From: Bacteroidota bacterium
Lineage (GTDB): Bacteria; Bacteroidota; Bacteroidia; Bacteroidales; B18-G4
NCBI GenBank assembly: GCA_003648575.1
Contig: QMPN01000085.1
Span: 1 to 10,781 of the forward strand
Reading direction: 5' to 3'
DNA length: 10,781 bases
This document shows, piece by piece, positions 199 through 10,781 of this stretch; position 1 is the first letter of the stretch, and every line of letters starts with the position of its first letter. The position numbers were made by a program, and so were the translations under genes. The notes under the pieces are model-generated. The model saw nothing but the letters and a program-made list of their open reading frames with translations, had not been told where the DNA came from and ran no database searches.

Positions 199-215
199 GT
201 GTTGAGTGTTGGGTG
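199..215 (+). repeat. Short heptanucleotide repeat, GTGTTGA/G type
   Basis: Units GTGTTGA, GTGTTGG and a partial GTG follow each other with a period of 7. This is the weakest of the period-7 arrays and is listed because the same period recurs at several other sites. Confidence 0.5.
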
Positions 216-253
216 AAAAAATATCAAAGCTTATATTCCAAATCCGTAACAAT

Positions 254-313
254 TTCCAAGGCTCCAAGTTCTAAATTCAAAACCTTCATCCAGCATCCAT
301 AATCCATAATCAG
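254..313 (+). repeat. Degenerate heptanucleotide array (TTCCAAG and ATCCATA types)
   Basis: Heptads can be read from TTCCAAG (254-260), then after one extra base CTCCAAG, TTCTAAA, TTCAAAA, and finally a clean run ATCCAGC, ATCCATA, ATCCATA, ATCAG (288-313). The unit ATCCAGC is a rotation of the reverse complement of CTGGATG, the unit of the array at 4830-4871, so these two arrays belong to one family in opposite orientation. Confidence 0.7.
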
Positions 314-318
314 TTCAC

Positions 319-349
319 TTGCTTATGGCCCTGTGATTTAGTATATTTA
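319..349 (+). promoter_or_regulatory. Bacteroidota-type promoter for the T9SS repeat protein
   Basis: TTG (319-321) is followed after 20 bases by TATATTTA (342-349), one base off the TAnnTTTG consensus of the Bacteroidota primary sigma factor. The predicted start near 356 leaves a leader of about 60 bases before the ATG at 418. The same core GTATATTTACA also stands upstream of the cytochrome gene. Confidence 0.55.
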
Positions 350-417
350 CACCACCAAAGGGGAAACTTTCCAAATGCTCTGCTTAATCAAAGGCTATTA
401 ACTTAAATAGTAGAGCT

Positions 418-2067
418 ATGAAAAAACTATTGTTCGTTACCTTTATCCTGATATTCTGTTGTGTTTGGCTATCAGCCCAACCTTGTTTGCCAAATGGTAT
501 TGAATTTAATACACAGGCACAGATTGATAGTTTTCAGATTAATCATCCTAACTGTACAGAGATTGAGGGGGATGTAAGTATTCGCGGTAATGGTAATGAT
601 ATTGCGAATTTAGACGGATTAAGTGTTTTGACTTCCATCGGGGGAGACCTTACAATTGCGAATAGCGATAATCTGACAAGTTTATCAGGATTGGAAAACT
701 TAATATCCATCGCGGAAGTATTTACTATTCAAGGTAACGATGCCCTGACAAGTTTAACAGGCCTGGACAATGTAACTTTTATTGGAGGAAACATTCGTAT
801 TGGAACAAGTAATTATCTTGGAAATATGAATGGAAACAAATCCCTGACCAGTTTATCGGGATTGGAAAACTTGACATCCATTGAGGGAAATATAGATATC
901 ATAGGCAACGATTCCCTGACCAGTTTAACAGGCCTGAACAACCTGAATTATATTGGGGGTAGATTACTTCTTAGTGGCAACAAATCCCTGCCCAATTTAA
1001 CAGGACTGGACAACCTGACTTCCATCGGGGGAACTTTAAATATTGGGTATCCTTATTATTTGTACCCTCCTATTGGGAACCCATCCCTAAGCAATTTATC
1101 GGGATTGGAAAACTTGACATCTATAGGGGGAGGTCTTTATGTTGGTGGTAACGCTATCCTGACCAGTTTAACAGCTCTGAACAACCTGAATTATATTGGG
1201 GGTCTGGCTATTTTGGGCAACGAATCACTGACCAATTTAACTGGTTTGGATAATGTGACTTCCGTTGGGGGAGGTATAGAAATTGGTTATAGTCATATCG
1301 GTAATCACGTTGGGACATCACTGACCAGTTTAACCGGACTGGACAATGTGACTTCTATAGGGGGAAACCTTTCAATTGCGGACAACAACGAACTGGTAAG
1401 TTTAACAGGCCTGGAGAATTTGACTTCAATCGGGGGAGACCTTGGAATTTATGATAGCAATCCCCTCTTGAGTTTAACAGGCCTGGAGAATTTGACTTCC
1501 ATCGGGGGAAACCTTAGATTTTATTGTAACGATGCTCAGGTAAGTTTAACAGAACTAAACAATGTGACTTCCATCGGGGGATACCTTAGGATTGAGGGTA
1601 TGCAAGCCTTGACCAGTTTATCGGGCTTGGATAATATAGAAGCATCCTCTATCGAAAATTTATACATTGCTTATAACAGCTCCTTATCTACCTGTGAAGT
1701 TCAAAGTGTATGTGATTATCTGGCTGCTCCTGGTGGAACCATTGAAATTCATGATAATGCCGTAGGGTGTAGCAGCCCAGAGGAAGTGCAGGATTCTTGT
1801 GAAGCCAATGCTGTATTCATAGATGAGCAATTTATCAAAGACAAGATAGAGTTATACCCCAACCCAGCACATCAGACCCTTACCATATCGGCTGAAGACT
1901 ACACTATTGAGAAAGTATTCATCTACACCCTCACAGGCCAACAGGTCTTGCAATCCAGACCTGTGAACGGTACGATCGATATTTCACACCTGCAATCAGG
2001 CATGTACATCGTGGAGGTTACTAACGGTAATCAAAAGCTTAGACAGAAACTGCTTGTGAGGAAGTAA
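418..2067 (+). CDS. Secreted leucine-rich/receptor-L-type repeat protein with T9SS sorting domain
   Basis: This 549-residue protein has a signal peptide (residues 1-20, hydrophobic core then LSA before QPC). A cysteine-bearing N-cap (C23, C46) leads into about 14 tandem repeats of 23-24 residues (about 60-425) of the form SLTGLDNVTSIGGNLxI. A C-cap with several cysteines follows (about 430-465), then a type A C-terminal sorting domain (477-549) starting ELYPNPA and ending in a basic tail. The repeats resemble leucine-rich/receptor L domains, which form an elongated beta-solenoid. In Bacteroidota such proteins are carried over the outer membrane by the type IX system and anchored or released at the surface, so adhesion or ligand binding is a reasonable inference; the ligand is unknown. 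Three repeats (3rd, 6th, 9th) are 8-10 residues longer. The start has no Shine-Dalgarno but an A-rich lead, normal for the phylum. It appears monocistronic. Confidence 0.9.
   Translation: MKKLLFVTFILIFCCVWLSAQPCLPNGIEFNTQAQIDSFQINHPNCTEIEGDVSIRGNGNDIANLDGLSVLTSIGGDLTIANSDNLTSLSGLENLISIAEVFTIQGNDALTSLTGLDNVTFIGGNIRIGTSNYLGNMNGNKSLTSLSGLENLTSIEGNIDIIGNDSLTSLTGLNNLNYIGGRLLLSGNKSLPNLTGLDNLTSIGGTLNIGYPYYLYPPIGNPSLSNLSGLENLTSIGGGLYVGGNAILTSLTALNNLNYIGGLAILGNESLTNLTGLDNVTSVGGGIEIGYSHIGNHVGTSLTSLTGLDNVTSIGGNLSIADNNELVSLTGLENLTSIGGDLGIYDSNPLLSLTGLENLTSIGGNLRFYCNDAQVSLTELNNVTSIGGYLRIEGMQALTSLSGLDNIEASSIENLYIAYNSSLSTCEVQSVCDYLAAPGGTIEIHDNAVGCSSPEEVQDSCEANAVFIDEQFIKDKIELYPNPAHQTLTISAEDYTIEKVFIYTLTGQQVLQSRPVNGTIDISHLQSGMYIVEVTNGNQKLRQKLLVRK
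841..1317 (+). repeat. Higher-order internal duplication in the repeat protein gene
   Basis: Bases 841-1083 (81 codons) and 1084-1317 (78 codons) each encode a triplet of repeats in the same order: an SGLENLTSI repeat, an NNLNYIGG repeat, then a TGLDN repeat with a longer loop. The first 39 bases of the two blocks differ at only a few positions. This suggests the solenoid grew by duplicating a three-repeat block rather than single repeats. Confidence 0.7.
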
Positions 2068-2076
2068 GGGCTTTCA

Positions 2077-2111
2077 GATATCCGATATCTGATATTCGAT
2101 ATTCGATATTC
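2077..2111 (+). repeat. Heptanucleotide array, GATATTC type (5 units)
   Basis: GATATCC, GATATCT, GATATTC, GATATTC, GATATTC lie back to back, beginning ten bases after the stop codon of the repeat-protein gene. The unit is nearly self-complementary, so both strands look alike and the array could form small cruciforms. Confidence 0.9.
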
Positions 2112-2117
2112 GAAATA

Positions 2118-2152
2118 AAATTCAATGCTTCAAATTCAAAATTCCAAACGCC
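2118..2152 (+). repeat. Degenerate heptanucleotide array, AAATTCC type
   Basis: Units AAATTCA, ATGCTTC, AAATTCA, AAATTCC, AAACGCC keep the period of 7 with substitutions. It lies six bases after the GATATTC array but has a different unit. Confidence 0.6.
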
Positions 2153-2207
2153 AGATTATAAGGTCTCATCAGTTTGGAACATTACATCTTTGTTATTTAC
2201 GAATTGT

Positions 2208-2249
2208 TTCGAATTTTATTATTTAGAATTTGGGGATTTGTATTGATTT
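2208..2249 (+). repeat. T-rich degenerate heptad stretch
   Basis: The run can be read as TTCGAAT, TTTATTA, TTTAGAA, TTTGGGG, ATTTGTA, TTGATTT. The phase is plausible but the sequence is AT-rich, so chance is a real alternative. It is part of the gene-free stretch 2068-2735. Confidence 0.3.
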
Positions 2250-2297
2250 AAGAAGGTGATTGGAGAAAAAGCTGTACGAAATGAGACTGATGAAGAC

Positions 2298-2379
2298 GAT
2301 AGAAGATAGAAGAAGTACTTATCCCTCTACTTTCTCCTTCTCCTTCGACAATCCACTTCTTCATTCTTCTATCTTCTAT
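2298..2379. repeat. Inverted pair of GATAGAA-type heptads
   Basis: GATAGAA GATAGAA GAAG (2298-2315) is mirrored by the reverse complement at 2355-2379, CTTCTTCATTCTTCTATCTTC. Compared with the left arm, the right arm carries exactly seven extra bases, i.e. one more unit. The arms are separated by about 40 pyrimidine-rich bases and could pair into a long hairpin just past the minus-strand terminator. Confidence 0.6.
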
Positions 2380-2382
2380 ATT

Positions 2383-2407
2383 AAAAAGCCCCGCGTTTCC
2401 GCGGGGC
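2383..2407 (-). terminator. Rho-independent terminator reading leftward
   Basis: On the minus strand a perfect 8-bp stem GCCCCGCG/CGCGGGGC (2407-2400 with 2395-2388) caps a GAAA tetraloop and is followed directly by TTTTT (2387-2383). On the plus strand no T-run follows, so the direction is clear. No protein gene on the minus strand lies upstream of it within the window before the plus-strand peptidase gene. Confidence 0.8.
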
Positions 2408-2455
2408 ACTGCTTCTGACGATTCCGCACTCGTCACACAGAATATGTGTCAGGGC
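2383..2455 (-). ncRNA. Candidate small RNA: three hairpins ending in a terminator
   Basis: Reading the minus strand leftward there are three stem-loops. ACACA/TGTGT spans 2449-2435 with a 5-base loop. GACGA/TCGTC spans 2434-2417 with an 8-base loop and directly abuts the first. The strong GAAA-capped terminator then spans 2407-2388. No open reading frame on this strand fits, and the neighbouring protein genes are on the plus strand, so the terminator seems to serve a free-standing transcript of perhaps 70-90 nt. I found no clear TAnnTTTG box on the minus strand above 2455, so the 5' end is a guess. I do not recognise an RNA family. Confidence 0.35.
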
Positions 2456-2470
2456 AGGATTTCTTCGAAA

Positions 2471-2519
2471 TCTGAAGTCAGAAGTCAGAAGTCAGAAGTC
2501 AGAAGTCTGAAGTCAGTTG
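2471..2519 (+). repeat. Heptanucleotide array, TCAGAAG type (7 units)
   Basis: TCTGAAG, then TCAGAAG four times, TCTGAAG and TCAGTTG follow with no gaps. It is the longest clean array in the window. It makes a spurious open frame translating as KSEVRSQ-like repeats, which is not a gene. Confidence 0.92.
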
Positions 2520-2591
2520 GAATCTCGAAATTAGTATTCCTTTACAATATAAAGATAGATTATGCTAAGGGGATAGTCCAGCGCCTATCAC

Positions 2592-2619
2592 TTAACGGCA
2601 GGCATGATTCAGTTAACGG
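2592..2619 (+). promoter_or_regulatory. Paired TTAACGG direct repeats upstream of the peptidase gene
   Basis: TTAACGG occurs at 2592-2598 and again at 2613-2619, starts 21 bases apart, i.e. two helical turns, about 120 bases before the peptidase start. A related pair CGGCAGGCAT / CGGCAGtcagGCAT flanks them. This could be a tandem operator. Nothing else is seen in 2520-2735; no convincing -7/-33 promoter pair was found. Confidence 0.25.
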
Positions 2620-2735
2620 TATAAAAAAGTCAGTCACCGGCAGTCAGGCATATTGAAGTAGTATTTGCTTTTTCTTTGCATTTTTCGGACTTTTACAGGG
2701 ACGAACTCACCCATTCATTATTCAAATCATCAATC

Positions 2736-4829
2736 ATGAACTACAAAAATATTCTCCCCCTGGCCCTCATCATTATGATCCTGGCCTCATGCAGCGAAAT
2801 CGCAAAAATAGAGAATACGCAAGAAGCAGACATCATAGGTAAGCCTGTGCTGGAGCTCGCTTCTGACCTGCAAAGTCCCGAAGTATTGTGGGCCTATGGC
2901 CGTCTCAGCGACCTGCAAGTTTCTCCTGATGGCAGCAACTTACTATATGGAGTTTCCTATTATAGTGTGGAACAGAATAAAGGCAACAGGGAGCTATACC
3001 TCTCGAACCCTGACGGCAGCAACAATATCCAATTAACGCATACGCCAAAAAGTGAATTCAATGCCCTCTGGCGGCCTGATGGGAAAAAGATTGGCTTCCT
3101 CTCATCTGCCTCGGGTAGCGTGCAACTCTATGAAATGAATCCCGACGGAAGCGGAACAAAACAAATATCAGATTTTAAAGGTGGAGTTGGTGGATTCAGC
3201 TATGCTCCTGATATGAAACACATCCTCTTTATCAAAGATGTTGTCATAGAAAACCCATATGATGAGTTGTATAAAGGACTGCCAAAAGCAAGTGGCCGAA
3301 TCAATTCCGACCTCATGTACAGGCATTGGGATCATTGGGTAGACACATATACACACATTTTTGTAGCTGATTATGAAGGTGAAGCAATAAGCGGAATGAA
3401 AGACATCATGGATGGAGAGCCGTGGGGAGCACCACTCAGCCCTTTCGGAGGAATGGAGCAGATAAGCTGGAGCCCTGACGGCAAAAGCATAGCATATACG
3501 TGCAAGAAAAAAACCGGTATGGACTATTCTGTTTCTACCAACTCCGATATATACTTGTATAGCCTGGAGAATGGCAAAACCGAAAACATTTCGGATGGGA
3601 TGATGGGCTTCGATATGGCACCGGTATTTTCTCCTGACGGAAGCATGATCGCATGGGAAAGCATGGAACGTGAGGGCTATGAATCAGACCAGACCAGGCT
3701 AATTATATATAATGTAGGCAGTGGAGAGAAGCGTGACCATTCAGCTTCCTTCGACCACAACACAGGTGGATATGCTTGGAAAGGGAATAAAAGTATATAC
3801 TTCATCAGCCCTCATCTGGGATCATATGAGGTCTTCAATTATAATATTTCAAATGAAGAGTTCAGTCAGGTAACACAAGGCATCCACAACTACCGGTCAG
3901 TGGCCGTGCTCGGGGAAAAACTGATAACGACAAGGCAGTCGATGTCGATGCCAACAGAAATATTTTCCGTTGACCCTGTTTCCGGCGCAGATACACAGGT
4001 ATCCTTTACAAATAAGGATTTGCTCGAGAAGATCACAATGGGAGAAGTTGAAAAAAGGTGGATCAAGACCACCGATGGCAAGGACATGCTCACCTGGGTG
4101 ATCTATCCGCCACACTTCGACCCTGCTAAGAAATACCCCACCCTGCTCTACTGTCAGGGCGGGCCGCAAAGTATGGTCAGCCAATTCTGGTCATACAGAT
4201 GGAATTTCCAGATAATGGCTGCAAACGGATACATCATCGTGGCACCAAACCGTCGCGGTGTGCCGGGCTTCGGACAGGCATGGAACGAACAGATCAGCGG
4301 CGATTACGGCGGACAGAACATGAAAGACTACCTGGCAGCTATTGATGAAGTATCGAAAGAACCCTTTGTCGATAATGAGCGACTGGGAGCTATAGGTGCC
4401 AGCTATGGTGGATTCTCTGTTTTCTGGCTTGCCGGAAACCATGACAAACGATTTAAAGCATTCATTTCACACGATGGCATGTTCAACTTCGAGGCGCAAT
4501 ACCTGGAAACGGAAGAGATGTGGTTCGTAGACTGGGACCTGGGCGGCGCTTTCTGGGAGAAAGACAACGCAGTGGCCATGAATTCATACGCGAACTCGCC
4601 CCACAAATTCATCAATAAGTGGGATACACCCATTCTCATCATTCATGGCGAACTCGACTACAGGATTACCTATACACAGGGCATGAGTGCTTTCAATGCT
4701 GCTGTGCTGAGGGGCGTACCTGCAGAGTTTCTCTTCTTTCCCGATGAAAATCACTGGGTACTGTCGCCGCAGAACGGGATACTCTGGCAAAGGACCTTTT
4801 ACAATTGGCTGGATCGGTGGTTGAAGTAA
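2736..4829 (+). CDS. dpp5: S9 family peptidase lipoprotein, dipeptidyl-peptidase 5-like
   Basis: This serine exopeptidase of the prolyl oligopeptidase family is likely to trim dipeptides from extracytoplasmic peptides. An in-frame ATG at 2676 exists, but the start at 2736 gives a clean lipoprotein signal (MNYKNILPLALIIMILASC, lipidated C19), leaving 697 residues. Residues about 35-420 form a PD40/WD40-like beta-propeller with repeated SPDG motifs (LQVSPDGS, WSPDGKS, FSPDGSM). The alpha/beta-hydrolase domain follows, with YCQGGPQ and the nucleophile in GASYGG (Ser556), HGELDYR (Asp641) and DENHW (His673). The spacing Ser-85-Asp-32-His matches what I recall for Porphyromonas gingivalis DPP5, and the DENHWVL..W..W.W tail is typical of that group. 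It sits in the periplasm or on the outer membrane. All triad residues are intact. Substrate preference cannot be read from the sequence. Confidence 0.88.
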   Translation: MNYKNILPLALIIMILASCSEIAKIENTQEADIIGKPVLELASDLQSPEVLWAYGRLSDLQVSPDGSNLLYGVSYYSVEQNKGNRELYLSNPDGSNNIQLTHTPKSEFNALWRPDGKKIGFLSSASGSVQLYEMNPDGSGTKQISDFKGGVGGFSYAPDMKHILFIKDVVIENPYDELYKGLPKASGRINSDLMYRHWDHWVDTYTHIFVADYEGEAISGMKDIMDGEPWGAPLSPFGGMEQISWSPDGKSIAYTCKKKTGMDYSVSTNSDIYLYSLENGKTENISDGMMGFDMAPVFSPDGSMIAWESMEREGYESDQTRLIIYNVGSGEKRDHSASFDHNTGGYAWKGNKSIYFISPHLGSYEVFNYNISNEEFSQVTQGIHNYRSVAVLGEKLITTRQSMSMPTEIFSVDPVSGADTQVSFTNKDLLEKITMGEVEKRWIKTTDGKDMLTWVIYPPHFDPAKKYPTLLYCQGGPQSMVSQFWSYRWNFQIMAANGYIIVAPNRRGVPGFGQAWNEQISGDYGGQNMKDYLAAIDEVSKEPFVDNERLGAIGASYGGFSVFWLAGNHDKRFKAFISHDGMFNFEAQYLETEEMWFVDWDLGGAFWEKDNAVAMNSYANSPHKFINKWDTPILIIHGELDYRITYTQGMSAFNAAVLRGVPAEFLFFPDENHWVLSPQNGILWQRTFYNWLDRWLK

Positions 4830-4871
4830 CTGGATACTGGATGCTGGATGCTGGATGCTGGATGCTGGTAA
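4830..4871 (+). repeat. Heptanucleotide array, CTGGATG type (6 units)
   Basis: CTGGATA, CTGGATG four times and CTGGTAA begin at the very next base after the peptidase stop codon. It is the same family, in the opposite orientation, as the ATCCAGC/ATCCATA array at 288-313. Confidence 0.92.
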
Positions 4872-4897
4872 CTAGCCACCAGAAACAAAATAACCCA

Positions 4898-4915
4898 CTT
4901 TGAACTTAATCAAAG
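4898..4915. promoter_or_regulatory. Perfect dyad CTTTGA-N6-TCAAAG upstream of mscS
   Basis: Two perfectly complementary 6-base half-sites are separated by six bases, 55 bases before the mscS start. The dyad contains a TTTG (4899-4902) that could act as a -33 element for a poor -7 match TATGATTTG at 4926-4934 (one base too long). It could be a small operator, or chance in AT-rich DNA. Confidence 0.25.
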
Positions 4916-4970
4916 CACCGTTGTTTATGATTTGAATAAAGACCTAAATATTTAACTAAAACCAAAATAA

Positions 4971-5777
4971 ATGTTGTTATTTAATGTAAACTATTACGTT
5001 GATTATGCAATGGATTATGCTCCGAAAGTAGTTGGAGCTCTCCTCGTGCTAATCATCGGCCTCTGGGTAATCAGTCTCATTACCAAAGGCTTTGGCAGGA
5101 TGATGAAAAAACAGGATACTGACCCATCACTACAGGGATTCCTGAAAAGTATGGTATCTATCCTTCTGAAGGTCCTCCTTTTTATCAGTGTGATGAGTAT
5201 GATGGGAATTGCAGCCACCTCCTTCATTGCCATTCTTGGTGCCGCAGGCCTTGCTGTTGGTTTAGCCCTGCAGGGAACCCTTCAAAATTTTGCCGGTGGT
5301 GTGATCATCCTTCTCTTCAAACCCTATACAGTGGGCGACTTCGTTGAAGGAGCAGGTCATATGGGAACAGTAAAGGAGATCAAGATCTTTACAACCATCC
5401 TGAATACCCCGGATAACAAGATCATCATTATCCCGAATGCTCAATTATCAAATTCTTCCCTTACCAATTTCTCTGCTATGGATACCAGAAGGGTAGACTT
5501 TACATTTGGCATCGGATATGGCGATGACTATGACAAAGCAAAGAAAACACTCCTTGACCTGATCAATGCGGATGAACGTATCATGAAAGATCCTGAGCCA
5601 TTTATTGCTCTTTCAGAACTGGCCGACAGTTCAGTGAATATTGTTGTAAGGGTATGGGCAAAAGGTGCCGACTACTGGGGAATCTACTTCGATATGAATG
5701 AAAAGGTTTATAAGACCTTCACCCAAGCAGGCCTTAATATTCCATTCCCACAAATGGATGTTCATTTGATTAAATAG
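4971..5777 (+). CDS. mscS: Small-conductance mechanosensitive channel, MscS family
   Basis: This is a 268-residue inner-membrane channel that opens under membrane tension to release solutes on hypo-osmotic shock; it forms a heptamer in the characterised family member. Three hydrophobic segments are seen: about 19-38, 59-83, and the pore-lining TM3 at 84-116. TM3 has the Gly/Ala-rich GAAGLAVGLALQGTLQNFAGG, very close to the MscS pore helix. The beta-domain follows, with FKPYTVGDFVE, the GTV turn and NTPDNKIIIIPNAQLS, then the C-terminal alpha/beta domain. The length is close to E. coli MscS (286), so this is the minimal type without extra sensor domains. The start codon is preceded by an AT-rich lead without Shine-Dalgarno. 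A heptanucleotide array begins on the last base of its stop codon. Confidence 0.93.
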   Translation: MLLFNVNYYVDYAMDYAPKVVGALLVLIIGLWVISLITKGFGRMMKKQDTDPSLQGFLKSMVSILLKVLLFISVMSMMGIAATSFIAILGAAGLAVGLALQGTLQNFAGGVIILLFKPYTVGDFVEGAGHMGTVKEIKIFTTILNTPDNKIIIIPNAQLSNSSLTNFSAMDTRRVDFTFGIGYGDDYDKAKKTLLDLINADERIMKDPEPFIALSELADSSVNIVVRVWAKGADYWGIYFDMNEKVYKTFTQAGLNIPFPQMDVHLIK

Positions 5778-5811
5778 TACAAGGTATTAAGTACAAAGTA
5801 CTAGGTACCAA
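5777..5811 (+). repeat. Heptanucleotide array, GTACAAG type (5 units)
   Basis: GTACAAG, GTATTAA, GTACAAA, GTACTAG, GTACCAA run without gaps from the last base of the mscS stop into the 3' end of the convergent gene. The fourth and fifth units supply that gene's stop codon and last residues. The whole spacer between the two convergent genes is repeat. Confidence 0.85.
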
Positions 5812-6325
5812 ATTTCAGTAAATTTTCATACGGGTCACCATCGATCCCGAGTAAAAGTGCAAAGGCTTCTTCTGTTGAGAGGCCTTTTTCTTTTAATATG
5901 AGCACCTCTTTCCTGAATCCCTCACCCCTTCCGGATAAGATCATATCCTCAATAACCATATGACGATACGCATACTGTTCTTCTACAGCAGTGTGCTGCC
6001 CGAATATTTCAAATTTGAACCCGTCAAAGCGAAAACGGGCGATCATGCTTTCCACCCCCCTGATCATCTTAGTTTTTATTTCAAAATCAGGCAGGTGGGA
6101 AAATGAATTCAGCACCACACTTCCATAGTGGTCTATTCTGAAAAACTGGCATATAATATCAATGTCGCTTTCCTCCAGATATATCCCTATCGGGTAGGTC
6201 CCCACCAATATTGGATCGAAAGCTGCTAATAGCTTAAGCAGCATACTATCCTGTATTGCTGCATAAACATCTCGTTGTTTTTCATCTCCTTCCGGGAGAT
6301 AGCTTAGATCACGCCATTGTTTCAT
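5801..6325 (-). CDS. DUF4269 nucleotidyltransferase-fold protein
   Basis: This protein of 174 residues has the N-terminal pattern DLSYLPEGDEKQRDVY and then LVGTYPIGI (GT at 42-43) and SDIDII (acidic pair D54/D56). That is the G[ST]...DhD signature of the polymerase-beta-like nucleotidyltransferase fold, in the form I associate with DUF4269. The family has no established substrate that I know of; the role is unknown and presumably cytoplasmic. An upstream TTG at 6332-6334 would add three residues, but the ATG at 6323-6325 is preferred because the -7-like box TAAATTTG ends at that TTG. Its stop codon and last two residues (G-T) are encoded by the heptanucleotide array shared with the mscS 3' end. 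It is convergent with mscS and divergent from the cytochrome gene. Confidence 0.8.
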   Translation of the reverse strand: MKQWRDLSYLPEGDEKQRDVYAAIQDSMLLKLLAAFDPILVGTYPIGIYLEESDIDIICQFFRIDHYGSVVLNSFSHLPDFEIKTKMIRGVESMIARFRFDGFKFEIFGQHTAVEEQYAYRHMVIEDMILSGRGEGFRKEVLILKEKGLSTEEAFALLLGIDGDPYENLLKFGT

Positions 6326-6349
6326 GAAGGCCAAATTTAAGTATATTTA
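6317..6349 (+). promoter_or_regulatory. Candidate promoter for the multiheme cytochrome gene
   Basis: TTG (6317-6319) and TATATTTA (6342-6349) are separated by 22 bases, slightly long for the Bacteroidota promoter. The -7 region GTATATTTACA is identical to the one before the secreted repeat protein. The predicted start near 6356 leaves about ten bases before the ATG at 6367. It overlaps the divergent promoter of the DUF4269 gene, so the two may interfere. Confidence 0.45.
6332..6339 (-). promoter_or_regulatory. -7 element TAAATTTG for the DUF4269 gene
   Basis: On the minus strand TAAATTTG matches TAnnTTTG exactly and ends six bases before the ATG at 6325, implying a leaderless or nearly leaderless mRNA. 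No good -33 TTG is found at the expected distance (the nearest TTTG is too close, 14 bases), which lowers confidence. Confidence 0.35.
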
Positions 6350-6366
6350 CATACAAAGCCTGTATC

Positions 6367-8808
6367 ATGTCTAAATCCGGAATTCTTTTTATTATTAGCT
6401 TTTCGCTTGCCTGTCTGGTCATTTATGCATTTAGTGGTCCGGGGACCGGAAGTCCCGTTGAAGGAATAAGCATTCAGCATTCTCCCGATGCCTACCCTGC
6501 TAATGAGAGCGGATGTCTCACATCCGGTTGTCATGAAGGGATCGCGCCCATCCGGCAGCATGATTCAAAGATGGCAAAGGATATTTATGAACTGGGCAAT
6601 GAACTTGACGATCCCAATGGCTGTGTTGTTTGCCATATGGGGAATGCAAAAACCGGGAATAAGGACGTGGCCCATAAAAACATGATCAGCTACCCGGGAT
6701 CTATATGGCTGGAAGACGGATCATGCCGGCATTGCCATGATGAGTACTATTACAATATGCATCGCAACCTCATGCAAACAGAAGCCGGAAAGATACAGGG
6801 GGCACTATGGGGATGGGGAGCACAAACAGGATACGATCCCATTTATGGAAATTATGAAATCAGTGACACGAACGGATTGACACCGGACGTAGGAACCCCT
6901 GCATATAAAGAGTATATGCATCGCTTGCGAGATAAATACCCGGCTAACTTTCCTGAGCACCTGGCTTTGCTTCCTGAAGCCGATATCAATACAATTGATG
7001 AGCACCCGGAACAGGGTGTCCTCACTTACCTGCGTTCTGAATGTCTTCGATGCCATGTTGGTGTGAGAGGAAAGCAAAGACGGGGTGACTACCATGGTGA
7101 TGGATGTGCTGCCTGCCATATCCCCTTTGGGGATGAGGGCTTGTACGAAGGACTCGACCCTTCGATACCCGGAGATGAACCCGGCCATATGCTGGTGCAT
7201 AGTATACAGTCATCGAGAAAAGCAAAAGTTAGCCTTCACGATAAAACATGGTCAGGTATTCCTCCTGAGACCTGTGCCAGTTGCCACAATCGGGGGAAAC
7301 GAATAGGAGTGTCTTTCCTGGGACTCATCGAGTCGGAATATGATACACCCTGGCAGGAAGATGGCAGCAGCCAGCCTAAATTGCATGGCAAGAACTACCA
7401 GTTTATACGTGACGACCATCACCACAGTCCTGAAAGCCGGGCTGAAAACCCCCGCGGGGGACTCTTATGCCAGGATTGTCATACCACCATTGCCATGCAT
7501 GGGAACGGGAATATTGGCGGAACCACTATGGGCGAGGTAGAGGTTGAATGTGCCGACTGTCATGGAAACCCTGATTTCTTCCCCTGGGAACTTCCATTGG
7601 GGTATCAGGATGAATTTGGCATTGAACCAGAGGAAAATGAAAGAGGCACAGTTTCAGAATTATTGAGTGAACAGGAAGAATTTTCTACTATCTACCCGCA
7701 ACAGGATGGCTATCTTCTCACTACCCGTGGAAATCCCTTCGGAAATATCGTCAGGGATGGAGAAGCTGTTATCGTTCATTCGGCCAGCGGGCTGGATTTC
7801 CGTGTACCTCTGTTGAAAAAGATCAATGAAGAGGACTCCTGGATCAACCCGTTAAAAGCGAATACAGCCATGGTAAACATAGGCACACACCTCGATAAAA
7901 TGGAGTGTTACGCCTGTCATTCTACCTGGGCACCGCAATGTTACGGATGCCATGTGCGAGTGGATTATTCACAGGGCCTGAAGAGTACTGATTGGCTGAA
8001 AGATGGAGGAACAGCCACTCAGGATGGGAAAGCATCAGAAGGCCGCACCTATGTTCGCTGGGAGGACCCCATCCTGGGTATCAATGGTGAAGGTCGTATC
8101 TGTCCAGTGATCACCGGTTGTCAACAGATCACCACGGTTATCGGAAAAGAAGGCGACATTATTGTCTCCAATAAGATATGGCGAACACCACCTAACATAG
8201 AAGGAGGTGGTGATGAAGGTCAGCGGGGCATCGATATGACACCTGCTCAGCCACATACCAGCAGCCGGCAAGCCAGGGAATGCACATCCTGCCATGCCAA
8301 CCCGAAAACCCTCGGTTATGGTATTAATGGTGGAGTATACATGAATGCCTATGATACTGACAAATACCTAGACCTGCGTGATGCAGATGGCTCGGTTCTG
8401 AGCCAAAATGCAAGGGTGCAATTCCATACCATAGACGGACTTGATATTGATCTTTCAAAGATTGTGACACGCGACGGACAACAATTGCAAACCGTAGGGC
8501 ATCATTGGCCCCTATCAGGTCCTTTGTCGCAGGACAGCAGGGATCGAATGGAGAGAATAGGTGTGTGTATCGCATGCCACAAGGATATTCCGAACGGAAG
8601 CATTCCCATTGCCATGCTTGTTAAGACGGGCGGCATAATTGGTATGGTTCCTCATACTGATGAAGAACACAGCCGCTTGCTAAATGAGGATATAAAATGG
8701 GCAGCAGTGACAAAAGTGCTCATCCCGCTGATTGTGACCCTTTTCCTGGCCATCATCATTTTTATAAGGATCAGAAGAAAACGAATGAAAAGAAAAGCTA
8801 ATGGATGA
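6367..8808 (+). CDS. Membrane-anchored multiheme (12-heme) cytochrome c
   Basis: This 813-residue protein has an N-terminal signal peptide or anchor (about 5-23), a large exported domain, and a C-terminal transmembrane helix (about 782-800) followed by a basic tail RIRRKRMKRK. That orientation leaves the hemes in the periplasm. Eleven CXXCH motifs start at C86, C120, C226, C247, C303, C368, C395, C514, C525, C639 and C734. A twelfth motif at C50 is CX4CH (CLTSGCH). C514 and C525 are only 11 residues apart, suggesting a closely packed heme pair. CPVITGC (579-585) lacks a following His and is probably not a heme site. Additional His clusters (for example DDHHH, GHHW) may be distal ligands. Electron transfer between the inner membrane and periplasmic or outer-membrane acceptors is likely; whether it is itself a reductase is unknown. 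I do not recognise the subfamily. No cytochrome maturation genes or quinol oxidase partner adjoin it. Confidence 0.88.
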   Translation: MSKSGILFIISFSLACLVIYAFSGPGTGSPVEGISIQHSPDAYPANESGCLTSGCHEGIAPIRQHDSKMAKDIYELGNELDDPNGCVVCHMGNAKTGNKDVAHKNMISYPGSIWLEDGSCRHCHDEYYYNMHRNLMQTEAGKIQGALWGWGAQTGYDPIYGNYEISDTNGLTPDVGTPAYKEYMHRLRDKYPANFPEHLALLPEADINTIDEHPEQGVLTYLRSECLRCHVGVRGKQRRGDYHGDGCAACHIPFGDEGLYEGLDPSIPGDEPGHMLVHSIQSSRKAKVSLHDKTWSGIPPETCASCHNRGKRIGVSFLGLIESEYDTPWQEDGSSQPKLHGKNYQFIRDDHHHSPESRAENPRGGLLCQDCHTTIAMHGNGNIGGTTMGEVEVECADCHGNPDFFPWELPLGYQDEFGIEPEENERGTVSELLSEQEEFSTIYPQQDGYLLTTRGNPFGNIVRDGEAVIVHSASGLDFRVPLLKKINEEDSWINPLKANTAMVNIGTHLDKMECYACHSTWAPQCYGCHVRVDYSQGLKSTDWLKDGGTATQDGKASEGRTYVRWEDPILGINGEGRICPVITGCQQITTVIGKEGDIIVSNKIWRTPPNIEGGGDEGQRGIDMTPAQPHTSSRQARECTSCHANPKTLGYGINGGVYMNAYDTDKYLDLRDADGSVLSQNARVQFHTIDGLDIDLSKIVTRDGQQLQTVGHHWPLSGPLSQDSRDRMERIGVCIACHKDIPNGSIPIAMLVKTGGIIGMVPHTDEEHSRLLNEDIKWAAVTKVLIPLIVTLFLAIIIFIRIRRKRMKRKANG

Positions 8809-8899: not shown

Positions 8900-9418
8900 A
8901 TGGATATATTATTGTTTGTATTGGGAATCATCTTATTGATCGTTGGTTTTATCGGTTGTATACTCCCAATTTTACCTGGCCAGGCCGTGGCTTTTCTTGC
9001 TTTGATCCTGCTTCAATTCATGAGCCCTCCCCGTATGGACGGAGACACCATCTGGGCCCTCGCCGGGATCATGGTCCTGGTAACTGTGCTTGATTATATC
9101 GTACCTATTTACGGAACTAAAAAGTTTGGAGGGACAAAACGGGGGGTCTGGGGCAGTACCATCGGCCTCATTTTCGGAATCTTCATCTTACCATCTATTG
9201 TGTTGATTGGGCCATTCGGGGTTTTCGGCATCATCCTTGGCCCATTTGTTGGCGCTTATATTGGAGAAGCCACCGGCAACCGGGATTCAAGAGAATCTTT
9301 TATTGCGGCCATCGGTTCCTTTATCGGATTTTTAACAGGCACTATGCTGAAGCTCGTGTACTCCGGAGTTTGCGCATACTACTTTTTTAAATATGCTTTC
9401 TCACAGCCAATGTGGTAA
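8900..9418 (+). CDS. DUF456 family integral membrane protein
   Basis: This protein of 172 residues is almost wholly hydrophobic, with about five or six transmembrane segments. It shows the glycine- and proline-rich family features: GFIGCILPILPG near residues 16-28, a VLDYIVPIYGTKKFGGTKRG loop (about 61-80), WGSTIGLIFGIF, GPFGVFGIILGPFVGAYIGE, and a terminal GSFIGFLTGTMLKL helix. These match DUF456 as I know it. The family is widespread and its function is not established; inner-membrane location is inferred from hydrophobicity. It lies 23 bases before the transketolase-like gene in the same direction, so co-transcription is likely, though a functional link is not evident. Confidence 0.85.
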   Translation: MDILLFVLGIILLIVGFIGCILPILPGQAVAFLALILLQFMSPPRMDGDTIWALAGIMVLVTVLDYIVPIYGTKKFGGTKRGVWGSTIGLIFGIFILPSIVLIGPFGVFGIILGPFVGAYIGEATGNRDSRESFIAAIGSFIGFLTGTMLKLVYSGVCAYYFFKYAFSQPMW

Positions 9419-9441: not shown

Positions 9442-10245
9442 ATGAACACAAAAATACCATCGGATCAGGAACTTAGGAAGATCTCACGGGAAGTCCGGGC
9501 TGAAATCATCAGGAGCCTTGCTGAGGCAGGTTCAGGGCATACCGGAGGTTCTCTCGGGCTGGCCGATATCTTCACCTGCCTTTATTTTGGTGTTATGAAA
9601 CACCATTGCCAGGACCCGGGTCGCAAGGAGCGCGACCGCCTGATCCTGTCAATTGAGCATGTTTCTTCTGTACTGTATGCTGCCATGGCCCTGGCGGGAT
9701 GCTTCTCTCAAGAGGAATTGAATACCCTCCAAAAGCTTGGAATGCCAGGCAACAAACATTTCTCAGGCTCAGCGGGACAAGGCTTATCCTTAGCTGTTGA
9801 AATGGCTATCACAGCAAGGAAGGATAAGAACGATTACCATATCTACTGCATACTCAGAGAAGGAGACCTGGAAGAGAGCTCAATCCGGAAAGCAGCTATG
9901 GAAGCAGTACACCACAATCTTAGTAAACTTACTATTCTTGTCGACAGGAATGGAGCAGCGATCGATGGCAAGGTCGAAGATTTACCAAAGATTGAACTAA
10001 CTACCGATAAATGGAAATCTTTTGGCTGGCATGTGATCCATTGCGATGGCCATGTGCACGAAGATGTATTTTCTGCCTACGAGGAAGCCATAAACATCCA
10101 TAGTAAACCCAGCGTGATCCTGGCAGATACTATTGTGGGAAAAGGTGTTTCAAGTATTGAGGGAGATAACAGATGGCATGGCAAAGCGCCTTCGAAAAAA
10201 GAAGCAGAATCTTTCCTTCGGGAACTAGAAAGGGGCGTATCATGA
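9442..10245 (+). CDS. Transketolase N-terminal-half protein with a degenerate cofactor site
   Basis: This 267-residue protein is homologous to the N-terminal (thiamine diphosphate-binding) subunit of split transketolases, with near-normal length. Recognisable are SGHTGGSLGLADI (H33), LSIEHV (H73, where the family has LSKGHA), GQGLSLAVEMA, LVDRNG (N170), DKWKSFGWHVI..DGH and WHGKAP. Three features are odd. The cofactor motif GDGE is replaced by REGD (139-142), putting Glu where the metal-binding Asp should be. The Glu-Gly after it has become Glu-Ser. About 14 residues carrying the GHP and PGVE(M/V)STG segments are missing before GQGL (only GNKHFSGSA remains). No C-terminal subunit gene follows; the next gene is truA on the other strand. 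It may be inactive, altered in reaction, or regulatory. The reading frame is intact, so it is not obviously a pseudogene. Confidence 0.85.
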   Translation: MNTKIPSDQELRKISREVRAEIIRSLAEAGSGHTGGSLGLADIFTCLYFGVMKHHCQDPGRKERDRLILSIEHVSSVLYAAMALAGCFSQEELNTLQKLGMPGNKHFSGSAGQGLSLAVEMAITARKDKNDYHIYCILREGDLEESSIRKAAMEAVHHNLSKLTILVDRNGAAIDGKVEDLPKIELTTDKWKSFGWHVIHCDGHVHEDVFSAYEEAINIHSKPSVILADTIVGKGVSSIEGDNRWHGKAPSKKEAESFLRELERGVS

Positions 10246-10285: not shown

Positions 10286-10781
10286 TTACATTTCATCCGG
10301 ATATTCAATATCGGTCAAATATAATCCGTGAGCCGGGACTGAAAGACCTGCTTCAGAGCGGTCTTTAGCTTCTATCACAGATCTGAATTCATCCAGGTCT
10401 ATCTTTCCCCTGCCGAGGTCTATCAGGGTACCCACAATAGCCCGAACCATATTTCTCAGGAAACGGTCGGCTTTAATAGTAAAGATCAGCATGTCTTCCT
10501 TTTGTTCCCAATATGCCTCCATCACATCACAATTGTTGGTTTTAACCTGTGTATGAAGCTTTGAAAAGCTCGTGAAATCGGTATAGTTGAGAAGAATGGC
10601 CGCCCCCTTATTCATGCTGTCGATATCCAATTGCCCATGCACATGCCACGCAAGTCCCTCATTGAAAGGATCTTTACGATTTGTGATCAGATACTCATAT
10701 GTGCGGGAAATAGCTGAAAAACGTGCATGCATATCAGGTGCAACCTCAAGAATATCGAAGATAAAGATATCAGAAGGCAAA
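10286..10781 (-). CDS. truA: tRNA pseudouridine synthase A, C-terminal part (partial at window edge)
   Basis: The frame runs off the right edge, so this is the C-terminal two-thirds (about 165 residues) of TruA, which makes pseudouridine at positions 38-40 of the anticodon stem-loop of many tRNAs. Family hallmarks seen are LPSDI near the edge, HARFSAISRTYEYLI, DFTSFSK, IKADRFLRNMVRAIVGTLID, LGRGKI and the ending AKDRSEAGLSVPAHGLYLTD. The catalytic Asp lies in the N-terminal part outside the window. TTG at the edge is an internal Leu codon, not a start. It is convergent with the transketolase-like gene, with 40 bases between. Confidence 0.93.
   Translation of the reverse strand, partial: LPSDIFIFDILEVAPDMHARFSAISRTYEYLITNRKDPFNEGLAWHVHGQLDIDSMNKGAAILLNYTDFTSFSKLHTQVKTNNCDVMEAYWEQKEDMLIFTIKADRFLRNMVRAIVGTLIDLGRGKIDLDEFRSVIEAKDRSEAGLSVPAHGLYLTDIEYPDEM

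What the first reader, a model, noticed from the sequence alone, without database searches (positions are those of the whole stretch)
199..5811. Tandem repeats locked to a 7-base period but with a different unit at nearly every locus
The spacers at 199-313, 2077-2519, 4830-4871 and 5777-5811 all hold tandem repeats with a period of exactly 7. The units are unrelated: GTGTTGA, ATCCATA, GATATTC, AAATTCC, GATAGAA, TCAGAAG, CTGGATG, GTACAAG. Only the ATCCAGC array (288-313) and the CTGGATG array (4830) share a family, in reverse orientation. The genes themselves show no such period. A constant period with changing sequence suggests a process that fixes length, not sequence, for example slippage with a 7-base register, a templating enzyme, or a heptad-reading nucleic-acid-binding protein. 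Heptanucleotide repeats are known in cyanobacteria (STRR); I recall similar runs in other Bacteroidota but cannot cite a description.
Basis: partly seen in the sequence, partly recalled or inferred. Interest (0 to 1): 0.7.

Follow-up and report, generated by a model that had tools for sequence, protein, structure and literature searches.

The report
Drifting seven-base repeats between genes
The gaps between genes in this uncultured Bacteroidota bacterium are filled with short tandem repeats that mostly step by seven bases while their sequence drifts and is replaced quickly between relatives, most simply explained by copying slippage with a preferred step of about seven; the seven-base excess itself is already known in bacteria.

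Summary
Intergenic lag-7 identity in the window is 0.381 (z=10); only the harmonics 14 and 21 also stand out, and genes show nothing. It extends to relatives: in 106 held pieces of the window's clade, noncoding arrays number 0, 0, 13, 118, 26, 7, 3 for periods 4 to 10; in 78 other loci 2, 1, 1, 34, 18, 5, 2. So 7 is a steep lower edge with a falling tail, not an exclusive lock.

Unit classes are shared between lineages only at chance level, but within a locus units are related: adjacent arrays with different units match in register (0.739 against 0.13-0.31, 85 pairs; 0.69 without the dominant family). Between two relatives with 84-94% identical flanks, none of 16 usable orthologous arrays is unchanged. 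Arrays hug stop codons.

Best reading: local slippage with a step near 7 plus point mutation, in tolerant spacer DNA. The heptanucleotide excess, its presence in Bacteroidetes and the slippage idea are in print. Register drift and turnover are what is added. Why 7, and how the CTGGAT[A/G] family spread, stay open.

The parts
199..215 (+). weak GTGTTGA/GTGTTGG heptad (about 2.4 copies, one mismatch)
   Evidence: read directly; not reported by TRF
288..311 (+). ATCCAGC followed by ATCCATA heptads in one register
2077..2113 (+). GATATTC array, beginning 9 bases after the stop codon (2065-2067) of the LRR gene; first units GATATCC, GATATCT
2294..2313 (+). GATAGAA (AGAAGAT) array
2365..2379 (+). 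TCTTCTA array, the same unit as 2294-2313 in inverted orientation
2467..2516 (+). GAAGTCA (TCAGAAG) array, longest exact part 2474-2507
4829..4868 (+). CTGGATA/CTGGATG array that starts at the last base of the S9 peptidase stop codon (4827-4829); orthologous site carries the same family in G001 and G002
5776..5811 (+). degenerate GTACAAG heptads between the convergent MscS and DUF4269 genes, overlapping both stop codons; orthologous site in G001 carries other heptads

Best explanation
The arrays are intergenic simple sequence repeats made by local, self-templated duplication with a preferred, near-minimal step of 7 nt (strand slippage during DNA synthesis), diversified by point mutation and re-amplified, in spacer DNA without strong constraint. 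SHOWN: period 7 dominates with a steep lower edge and a falling tail at 8-10; unit classes are shared between lineages only at chance level; adjacent arrays with different units stay in one register and most often differ by one base; arrays are replaced or resized between relatives with 84-94% identical flanks; arrays abut stop codons. INFERRED: that the agent is polymerase slippage, that the edge at 7 reflects the polymerase's hold on the primer-template (an idea already in print), and that placement reflects tolerance and not a function.
For: Period spectrum. In-register relation of adjacent units: 0.739 in phase against 0.13-0.31 in the six other phases, 49 of 85 pairs one base apart, 18 two; without the 25 pairs of CTGGATA with CTGGATG, 60 pairs give 0.69 against 0.16-0.32, 24 one base apart, 18 two. 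Identity decays with unit distance, 0.647 to 0.377 over ten units, other lags 0.249; without CTGGAT-rich regions 0.606 to 0.337 against 0.269. None of 16 usable orthologous arrays unchanged between G020 and G021. Same place, same period, other unit at the MscS 3' end of the window and G001. Unit classes overlap at chance. Array ends within 5 bp of gene 3' ends: 12 against 3.6 expected in the clade, 8 against 1.6 in 98 other loci.
Against: One family, CTGGAT[A/G], sits at dozens of places in G021 (64 overlapping hits of a 20-mer), which local slippage alone does not explain; it comes with a REP-like palindrome in the same four genomes. Its arrays are one-sided: heptad-like sequence continues further on one flank in 21 of 30 (p=0.003; 14 of 21 where neither flank is coding, p=0.02), and 6 of 36 regions start within 15 bp after a sense stop while 0 end within 15 bp before an antisense stop. 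No tandem-duplication indel of 4 nt or more was seen in 85 kb of alignable G020/G021 DNA, so the birth step was not observed. Small-loop mismatch repair (recalled knowledge) would not by itself remove periods 5 and 6. Units show an excess of GG/CC (1.32) and a deficit of CG and GC (0.68), so composition is not wholly free. Start codons are avoided only in the clade, not in the 98 other loci. The 7 unselected G020 contigs hold only 2 period-7 arrays in 33 kb.
Confidence: 0.72

Rival explanations
1. A functional element: the heptads are bound by a protein or act in the transcript's 3' end (termination, mRNA stability, translation), as was proposed for TAACTGA repeats near start codons in marine Beggiatoaceae.
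For: Arrays abut stop codons more than chance. In G021's chosen contigs and in 98 other loci convergent spacers hold more arrays per spacer than divergent ones. CTGGAT[A/G] arrays start close to a sense stop 6 times and end close to an antisense stop 0 times.
Against: No shared unit between lineages; units not enriched in palindromes (0.32, expected 0.37) or stop-free frames (0.80, expected 0.82); overall orientation of CTGGAT[A/G] regions to flanking gene ends even (10 sense only, 11 antisense only, 12 both, 3 neither); purine bias weak (25 of 45 arrays above one half); arrays present at a site in one relative and absent in another.
Confidence: 0.1
2. Arrays are copied between loci as blocks (ectopic recombination or a mobile palindromic element), slippage only trimming them.
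For: CTGGAT[A/G] arrays at many loci, with both variants interspersed at many of them; a REP-like palindrome lies inside or beside such arrays in L001, L187, L190, L153 and L301 and its pattern occurs in the same 4 of 9 genomes as the CTGGATG trimer.
Against: Most unit classes seen in the clade are not repeated widely: of 163 arrays in 60 classes, 73 belong to the two CTGGAT classes and no other class has more than 6. Flanks of CTGGAT arrays show no common sequence beyond heptads and the palindrome by eye. In-register drift into other units needs local copying.
Confidence: 0.1
3. A dedicated templating enzyme (reverse transcriptase or telomerase-like) lays down 7-nt units.
For: Period near-constant; units differ between loci.
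Against: Units drift from neighbour to neighbour, which a fixed template would not give; periods 8 to 10 occur in the same genomes. No gene search for such an enzyme was made.
Confidence: 0.03
4. Loss of MutS-type mismatch repair lets the repeats accumulate.
For: No MutS1 hit over the cut-off in G001 and G002.
Against: The array-richest genome sampled, G021, has a full-length MutS1 (902 bits, 894-aa frame); 36 of 41 genomes have one over the cut-off. G001 and G002 are fragmented MAGs of about 2 Mb. Periods below 6, where repair should matter most, are nearly absent.
Confidence: 0.03

Closest known systems
Long simple sequence repeats (LSSR) of prokaryotes with heptanucleotide excess (Mrazek, Guo & Shah 2007, not held, known here only through citing papers; Mrazek & Huang 2014, PMC4060949)
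   Same: Tandem units of 5-11 nt with heptanucleotides the most abundant class in most repeat-rich genomes (as told in PMC4679880); among repeats of 4-11 nt Bacteroidetes have a positive median (0.75) for heptanucleotide trimers only; polymerase slippage over a 7-nt contact proposed.
   Different: Seen here in addition: fixed-register drift of units, a period spectrum with a lower edge at 7, replacement between orthologous spacers, stop-codon abutment.
GGGAATC / GGGGA(C/T)T heptamers of Xanthomonas and Nostoc (PMC4692102)
   Same: Intergenic heptamers, fewer than expected between divergent genes, length and sequence variation between close relatives.
   Different: One G-rich family per genome there, tied to G-quadruplexes; dozens of unit classes here, and the window's exact units have no GGG or CCC.
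TAACTGA repeats of marine Beggiatoaceae, cyanobacteria and five Bacteroidetes (PMC4679880)
   Same: Intergenic heptanucleotide direct repeats; other heptamer repeats mentioned beside them in Gramella, Aequorivita and Elizabethkingia.
   Different: One unit, mostly just upstream of start codons; here many units, at gene 3' ends, and TAACTGA is not among the window's units.
Cyanobacterial STRR heptanucleotides (Calothrix; name recalled, the Calothrix report is mentioned in PMC4692102)
   Same: Tandem heptanucleotides in a bacterial genome.
   Different: Three units reported in that organism; dozens of classes in the clade here.

Membership tests
Prokaryotic heptanucleotide LSSR | Tandem 7-nt units in excess of chance | tested here: met
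Prokaryotic heptanucleotide LSSR | Period 7 more abundant than neighbouring periods | tested here: met
   118 against 13 (6) and 26 (8) in the clade, 34 against 1 and 18 in 78 loci
Prokaryotic heptanucleotide LSSR | Mainly noncoding | tested here: met
   118 noncoding and 11 coding arrays in the clade; 34 and 7 in 78 loci (simple ORF caller)
Prokaryotic heptanucleotide LSSR | Copy number changes by slippage among strains | not testable with these tools
   no strain-level genomes of this clade at hand; between G020 and G021 arrays are replaced or resized
TAACTGA repeats of Beggiatoaceae | Unit TAACTGA | tested here: not met
   not among the window's units
TAACTGA repeats of Beggiatoaceae | Placement within several nucleotides upstream of start codons | tested here: not met
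   2 array ends within 30 bp of a start, 11.0 expected, in the clade; in 98 other loci 9 against 8.1
G-quadruplex heptamers (GGGNATC type) | Unit with a run of at least three G | tested here: not met
   none of the window's exact array units has GGG or CCC; G026 has CTGGGGA units

The most novel reading that the evidence does not exclude
Spacer DNA in this clade is continually rebuilt by a synthesis mode that re-primes about 7 nt back on its own product, so that one event can lay down several heptads that copy and mis-copy their predecessor. That would be a property of a particular polymerase or repair pathway of these bacteria and not generic slippage, and it would account for the stepwise in-register drift, the steep edge at 7, the one-sided decay of arrays and the fast wholesale replacement.
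Probability: 0.12. Interest if true: 0.8.

Novelty: new member of a known kind. Interest (0 to 1): 0.45.

Why it matters
Why bacterial tandem repeats favour 7 nt has been open since at least 2007. The clade found here includes two genomes whose syntenic flanks are 84-94% identical while the spacers between them have turned over, which gives many independent events for testing whether 7 is a minimum slip length. It also warns that spacer length, assembly breaks and repeat-based markers in such genomes may be shaped by a mutational process and not by function.

Tried and rejected
MutS1 loss as the cause: no hit over cut-off in G001 and G002 but intact in array-rich G021. RNA-level bias: mean purine fraction 0.543, 25 of 45 arrays above one half, weak. 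Stop-free or palindromic units: no excess. Shared preferred units across Bacteroidota: overlap at chance; the GAAGTCA trimer is in 6 of 395 sampled genomes, its reversed control in 1 of 395. Birth step as 7-nt tandem-duplication indels in alignable DNA: none of 4 nt or more in 85,343 aligned bases. The first decay calculation was spoiled by masked stretches read as N and was repeated without them. In one search, 20 of the 74 G021 heptad regions held (count) could be anchored on both sides in one G020 contig; I set aside by hand 3 essentially identical ones (2 inside ORFs, 1 outside any called ORF) and 1 anchored through a repeat, leaving 16, some sharing a spacer. Many G021 and part of the G020, G001 and G002 stretches were chosen because they held repeats or synteny, so densities from them are biased; unselected contigs are given apart. 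Two literature searches returned mostly unrelated papers. On re-checking I corrected the number of clade pieces, repeated the register test without the dominant family and recounted array orientation by script.
Full report
THE WINDOW. It is a stretch of an uncultured Bacteroidota (Bacteroidales-like) genome. Genes, by Pfam (boundaries): a secreted Recep_L/LRR protein with a type IX sorting tail (418-2067), an S9 peptidase (2736-4829), an MscS channel (4971-5777), DUF4269 (5801-6334, minus), a multihaem cytochrome (6367-8808), DUF456 (8900-9418), a transketolase N-terminal half (9442-10245) and a pseudouridine synthase (10286-10780, minus). Its own genome is not held. The nearest relatives by the S9 peptidase are L001 (genome G001, 80%) and L002 (G002, 79%), both Bacteroidota MAGs.

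OBSERVATION. In 1,375 bp of spacer, lag-7 identity is 0.381 (z=10), lag 14 0.344 (z=6.7), lag 21 0.317 (z=4.3), and no other lag from 2 to 24 exceeds z=1.7; in genes lag 7 is 0.244. TRF finds the listed arrays. The finding is real. Weak points: GTGTTGA at 199 and AAATTCC near 2125 are degenerate, and GATAGAA and TTCTATC are one family in opposite orientation.

SPECTRUM IN RELATIVES. With exact lag-k runs of at least 10 and neighbouring arrays merged, 106 held pieces of the window, G001, G002, G020 and G021 (105 kb noncoding; 4 of the pieces read only N) give 0, 0, 13, 118, 26, 7, 3 noncoding arrays for periods 4 to 10; 78 other named loci (168 kb noncoding) give 2, 1, 1, 34, 18, 5, 2, the period-7 arrays lying in 15 of the 78. 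Much of the first set was chosen for repeats or synteny. Unselected contigs alone (coding included): G021 (34 kb) 0, 0, 0, 10, 3, 0, 0; G002 (153 kb) 0, 0, 1, 11, 1, 0, 2; G001 (107 kb) 0, 1, 3, 8, 3, 1, 1; G020 (33 kb) 0, 0, 0, 2, 0, 1, 0. First-order random sequences made from the G001, G002 and window pieces give 0.2 or fewer period-7 arrays per set on average, and 49 kb of E. coli gives none. In 20 stretches of 17 other Bacteroidota genomes (263 kb) 4 period-7 arrays were found, so the trait is patchy. The period is therefore not locked to 7: 7 is a steep lower edge followed by a decline.

UNITS. Sixty unit classes in the clade and 41 in 98 other loci share 2, as chance predicts (2.5 +/- 1.5). 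Units are not enriched in stop-free (0.80, expected 0.82) or palindromic sequences (0.32, expected 0.37), but GG/CC is in excess and CG and GC are rare. The CTGGATG trimer occurs in 2 of 19 genomes first searched (a twentieth was not held), both the closest relatives, and a 20-mer of it in 4 of 9 genomes of the family of G002. The GAAGTCA trimer occurs in 6 of 395 sampled genomes of the phylum, its reversed control in 1.

REGISTER. Within a spacer the units are not unrelated. Where two exact arrays with different units are adjacent (85 pairs in 112 pieces), the second matches the first at 0.739 in phase and at 0.13-0.31 in the six other phases; 49 pairs differ at one base and 18 at two. Leaving out 25 pairs of CTGGATA with CTGGATG, 60 pairs give 0.69 against 0.16-0.32, 24 at one base and 18 at two. 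Example (L190, G021): ACTGGAT ... ACTGGTT GCTGGCT GCTGACT ACTGACT ACTGTCT TCTGTTT. Over 98 heptad regions, chosen for high lag-7 identity, identity falls from 0.647 at one unit to 0.377 at ten, while off-register lags average 0.249; without CTGGAT-rich regions (67 left) 0.606 to 0.337 against 0.269. Each unit is thus best seen as derived from its neighbour, not from a fixed master.

TURNOVER. At the MscS 3' end the window has GTACAAG-type heptads and G001 has GTGTTGA- and ATTTCAG-type heptads, with an 85% identical protein. At the S9 3' end the window, G001 and G002 share the CTGGAT[A/G] family with different copy numbers, G001 with a palindromic insert; G026 has CTGGGGA/CTGGGAA; G025 has about two ATACCGG units; G020, G021, G022 and G024 show no clear array there, and in G023 the contig ends inside the gene. 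G020 and G021 are a closer pair: long syntenic matches are mostly 81-95% identical. Of 74 G021 heptad regions held, 20 could be anchored on both sides in one G020 contig, with flanking alignments 84-94% identical. Setting aside 3 essentially identical ones (2 of them inside ORFs) and 1 anchored through a repeat, none of 16 is unchanged; by the script's tag 9 of 16 have a period-7 array in the G020 spacer too, some of them in the same spacer, usually with another unit or copy number; 5 have a short G020 counterpart and 2 none. At L179 9639 about 12 CTGGATA units face about 12 CCGGATA/CCGGGTG units. The 20-mer of CTGGATG gives 64 overlapping hits in G021 and 2 in G020.

PLACEMENT. Relative to random placement in the same spacers, 12 of 63 array ends facing a gene 3' end lie within 5 bp of it (3.6 expected) and 2 of 55 facing a start lie within 30 bp (11.0 expected) in the clade (63 pieces). 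In 98 other loci 8 of 49 lie within 5 bp of a 3' end (1.6 expected), but starts are not avoided (9 of 35 within 30 bp, 8.1 expected) (short ORFs largely made of arrays were dropped before the count). Convergent spacers hold more arrays per spacer than divergent ones in G021's chosen contigs (13 arrays, 15 spacers; 7 arrays, 17 spacers) and in the 98 loci (15 arrays, 106 spacers; 7 arrays, 144 spacers); in G001, G002 and the unselected G021 contigs the numbers are too small to tell. Of 36 CTGGAT[A/G] regions 10 have only a sense gene end within 400 bp, 11 only an antisense one, 12 both and 3 neither; yet 6 start within 15 bp after a sense stop and 0 end within 15 bp before an antisense stop. 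The arrays of this family also decay further on one side (21 of 30, p=0.003; 14 of 21 with noncoding flanks, p=0.02). This polarity is not explained.

MECHANISM. The facts fit local strand slippage with a preferred step near 7, followed by point mutation and re-amplification, in DNA that tolerates it. Drift from neighbour to neighbour argues against a fixed template; chance-level sharing of units and turnover argue against a sequence-reading protein. Mismatch-repair loss is contradicted by an intact MutS1 in G021. Not explained: the dispersal of CTGGAT[A/G] with its REP-like palindrome, its polarity, and why periods 5 and 6 are so rare. The birth step itself was not seen. That a polymerase is the agent is inference.

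KNOWN. PMC4679880 (abstract, introduction and Bacteroidetes section read) reports that Mrazek et al. [quoted passage not shown] the 2007 paper is not held. PMC4060949 (passages and part 1 of section 3.1 read) gives Bacteroidetes a positive median for heptanucleotide trimers alone among repeats of 4 to 11 nt. PMC4692102 (passages and discussion read) reports noncoding bias, few repeats between divergent genes and variation between close relatives for one heptamer family in Xanthomonas. PMC12699852 (passages) reports that a subset of 6-9 nt repeats is enriched in prokaryotic phyla and that density of 5-, 7-, 8- and 9-nt repeats correlates with indels in Pseudomonadota, most strongly for 5. PMC6749651 (passages) notes bacterial satellites derived from heptamers. 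PMC4700210 (passages) reviews slippage. In seven searches, seen as listings with starts of abstracts apart from these six papers, I saw no description of register drift or of replacement between orthologous spacers in Bacteroidota; PMC4679880 does describe relatives of Gramella and Aequorivita without the repeats. The arrays are new members of a known kind, with better-resolved dynamics.

Noticed in passing
L001 about 4595-4626; L187; L190; L153; L301 (G020:C3): A REP-like palindrome (core CACCGAAGCTTTAGCGNAGG) lies inside or beside CTGGAT arrays; the core occurs 2, 3, 6 and 17 times in G001, G002, G020 and G021 and in none of G022-G026, the same 4 of 9 genomes as the CTGGATG 20-mer.
   Followed up: partly
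window 2355-2465: A block with a GC-rich hairpin (about 2386-2408) is 75-84% identical in G001, G002, G020 and G021. In L001 and L002 it lies just outside the 3' side of a minus-strand reading frame upstream of the S9 gene; the window has another gene there but keeps the block.
   Followed up: no
L179 5613-5779, L291 3224-3394, L294 2358-2417, L297 6694-6829: Period-8 arrays in G020 and G021, several of an AGTCTCAA/GAGACTGT type, with the same kind of in-register change of units (7 adjacent pairs).
   Followed up: partly
G020:C3, C15, C16, C30 (L301, L292, L290, L295); end of L002: Several contigs end in or beside heptad or palindrome sequence, so short-read assemblies of this clade may break at the arrays and undercount them.
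   Followed up: no
G001 and G002: No MutS1 hit over the cut-off in either, although most relatives have one (36 of 41); both are fragmented MAGs of about 2 Mb, so absence is not shown.
   Followed up: partly
window 824-1635: The secreted LRR-type gene is itself built of repeats of about 72 and 144 nt, a coding repeat unrelated to the heptads.
   Followed up: no
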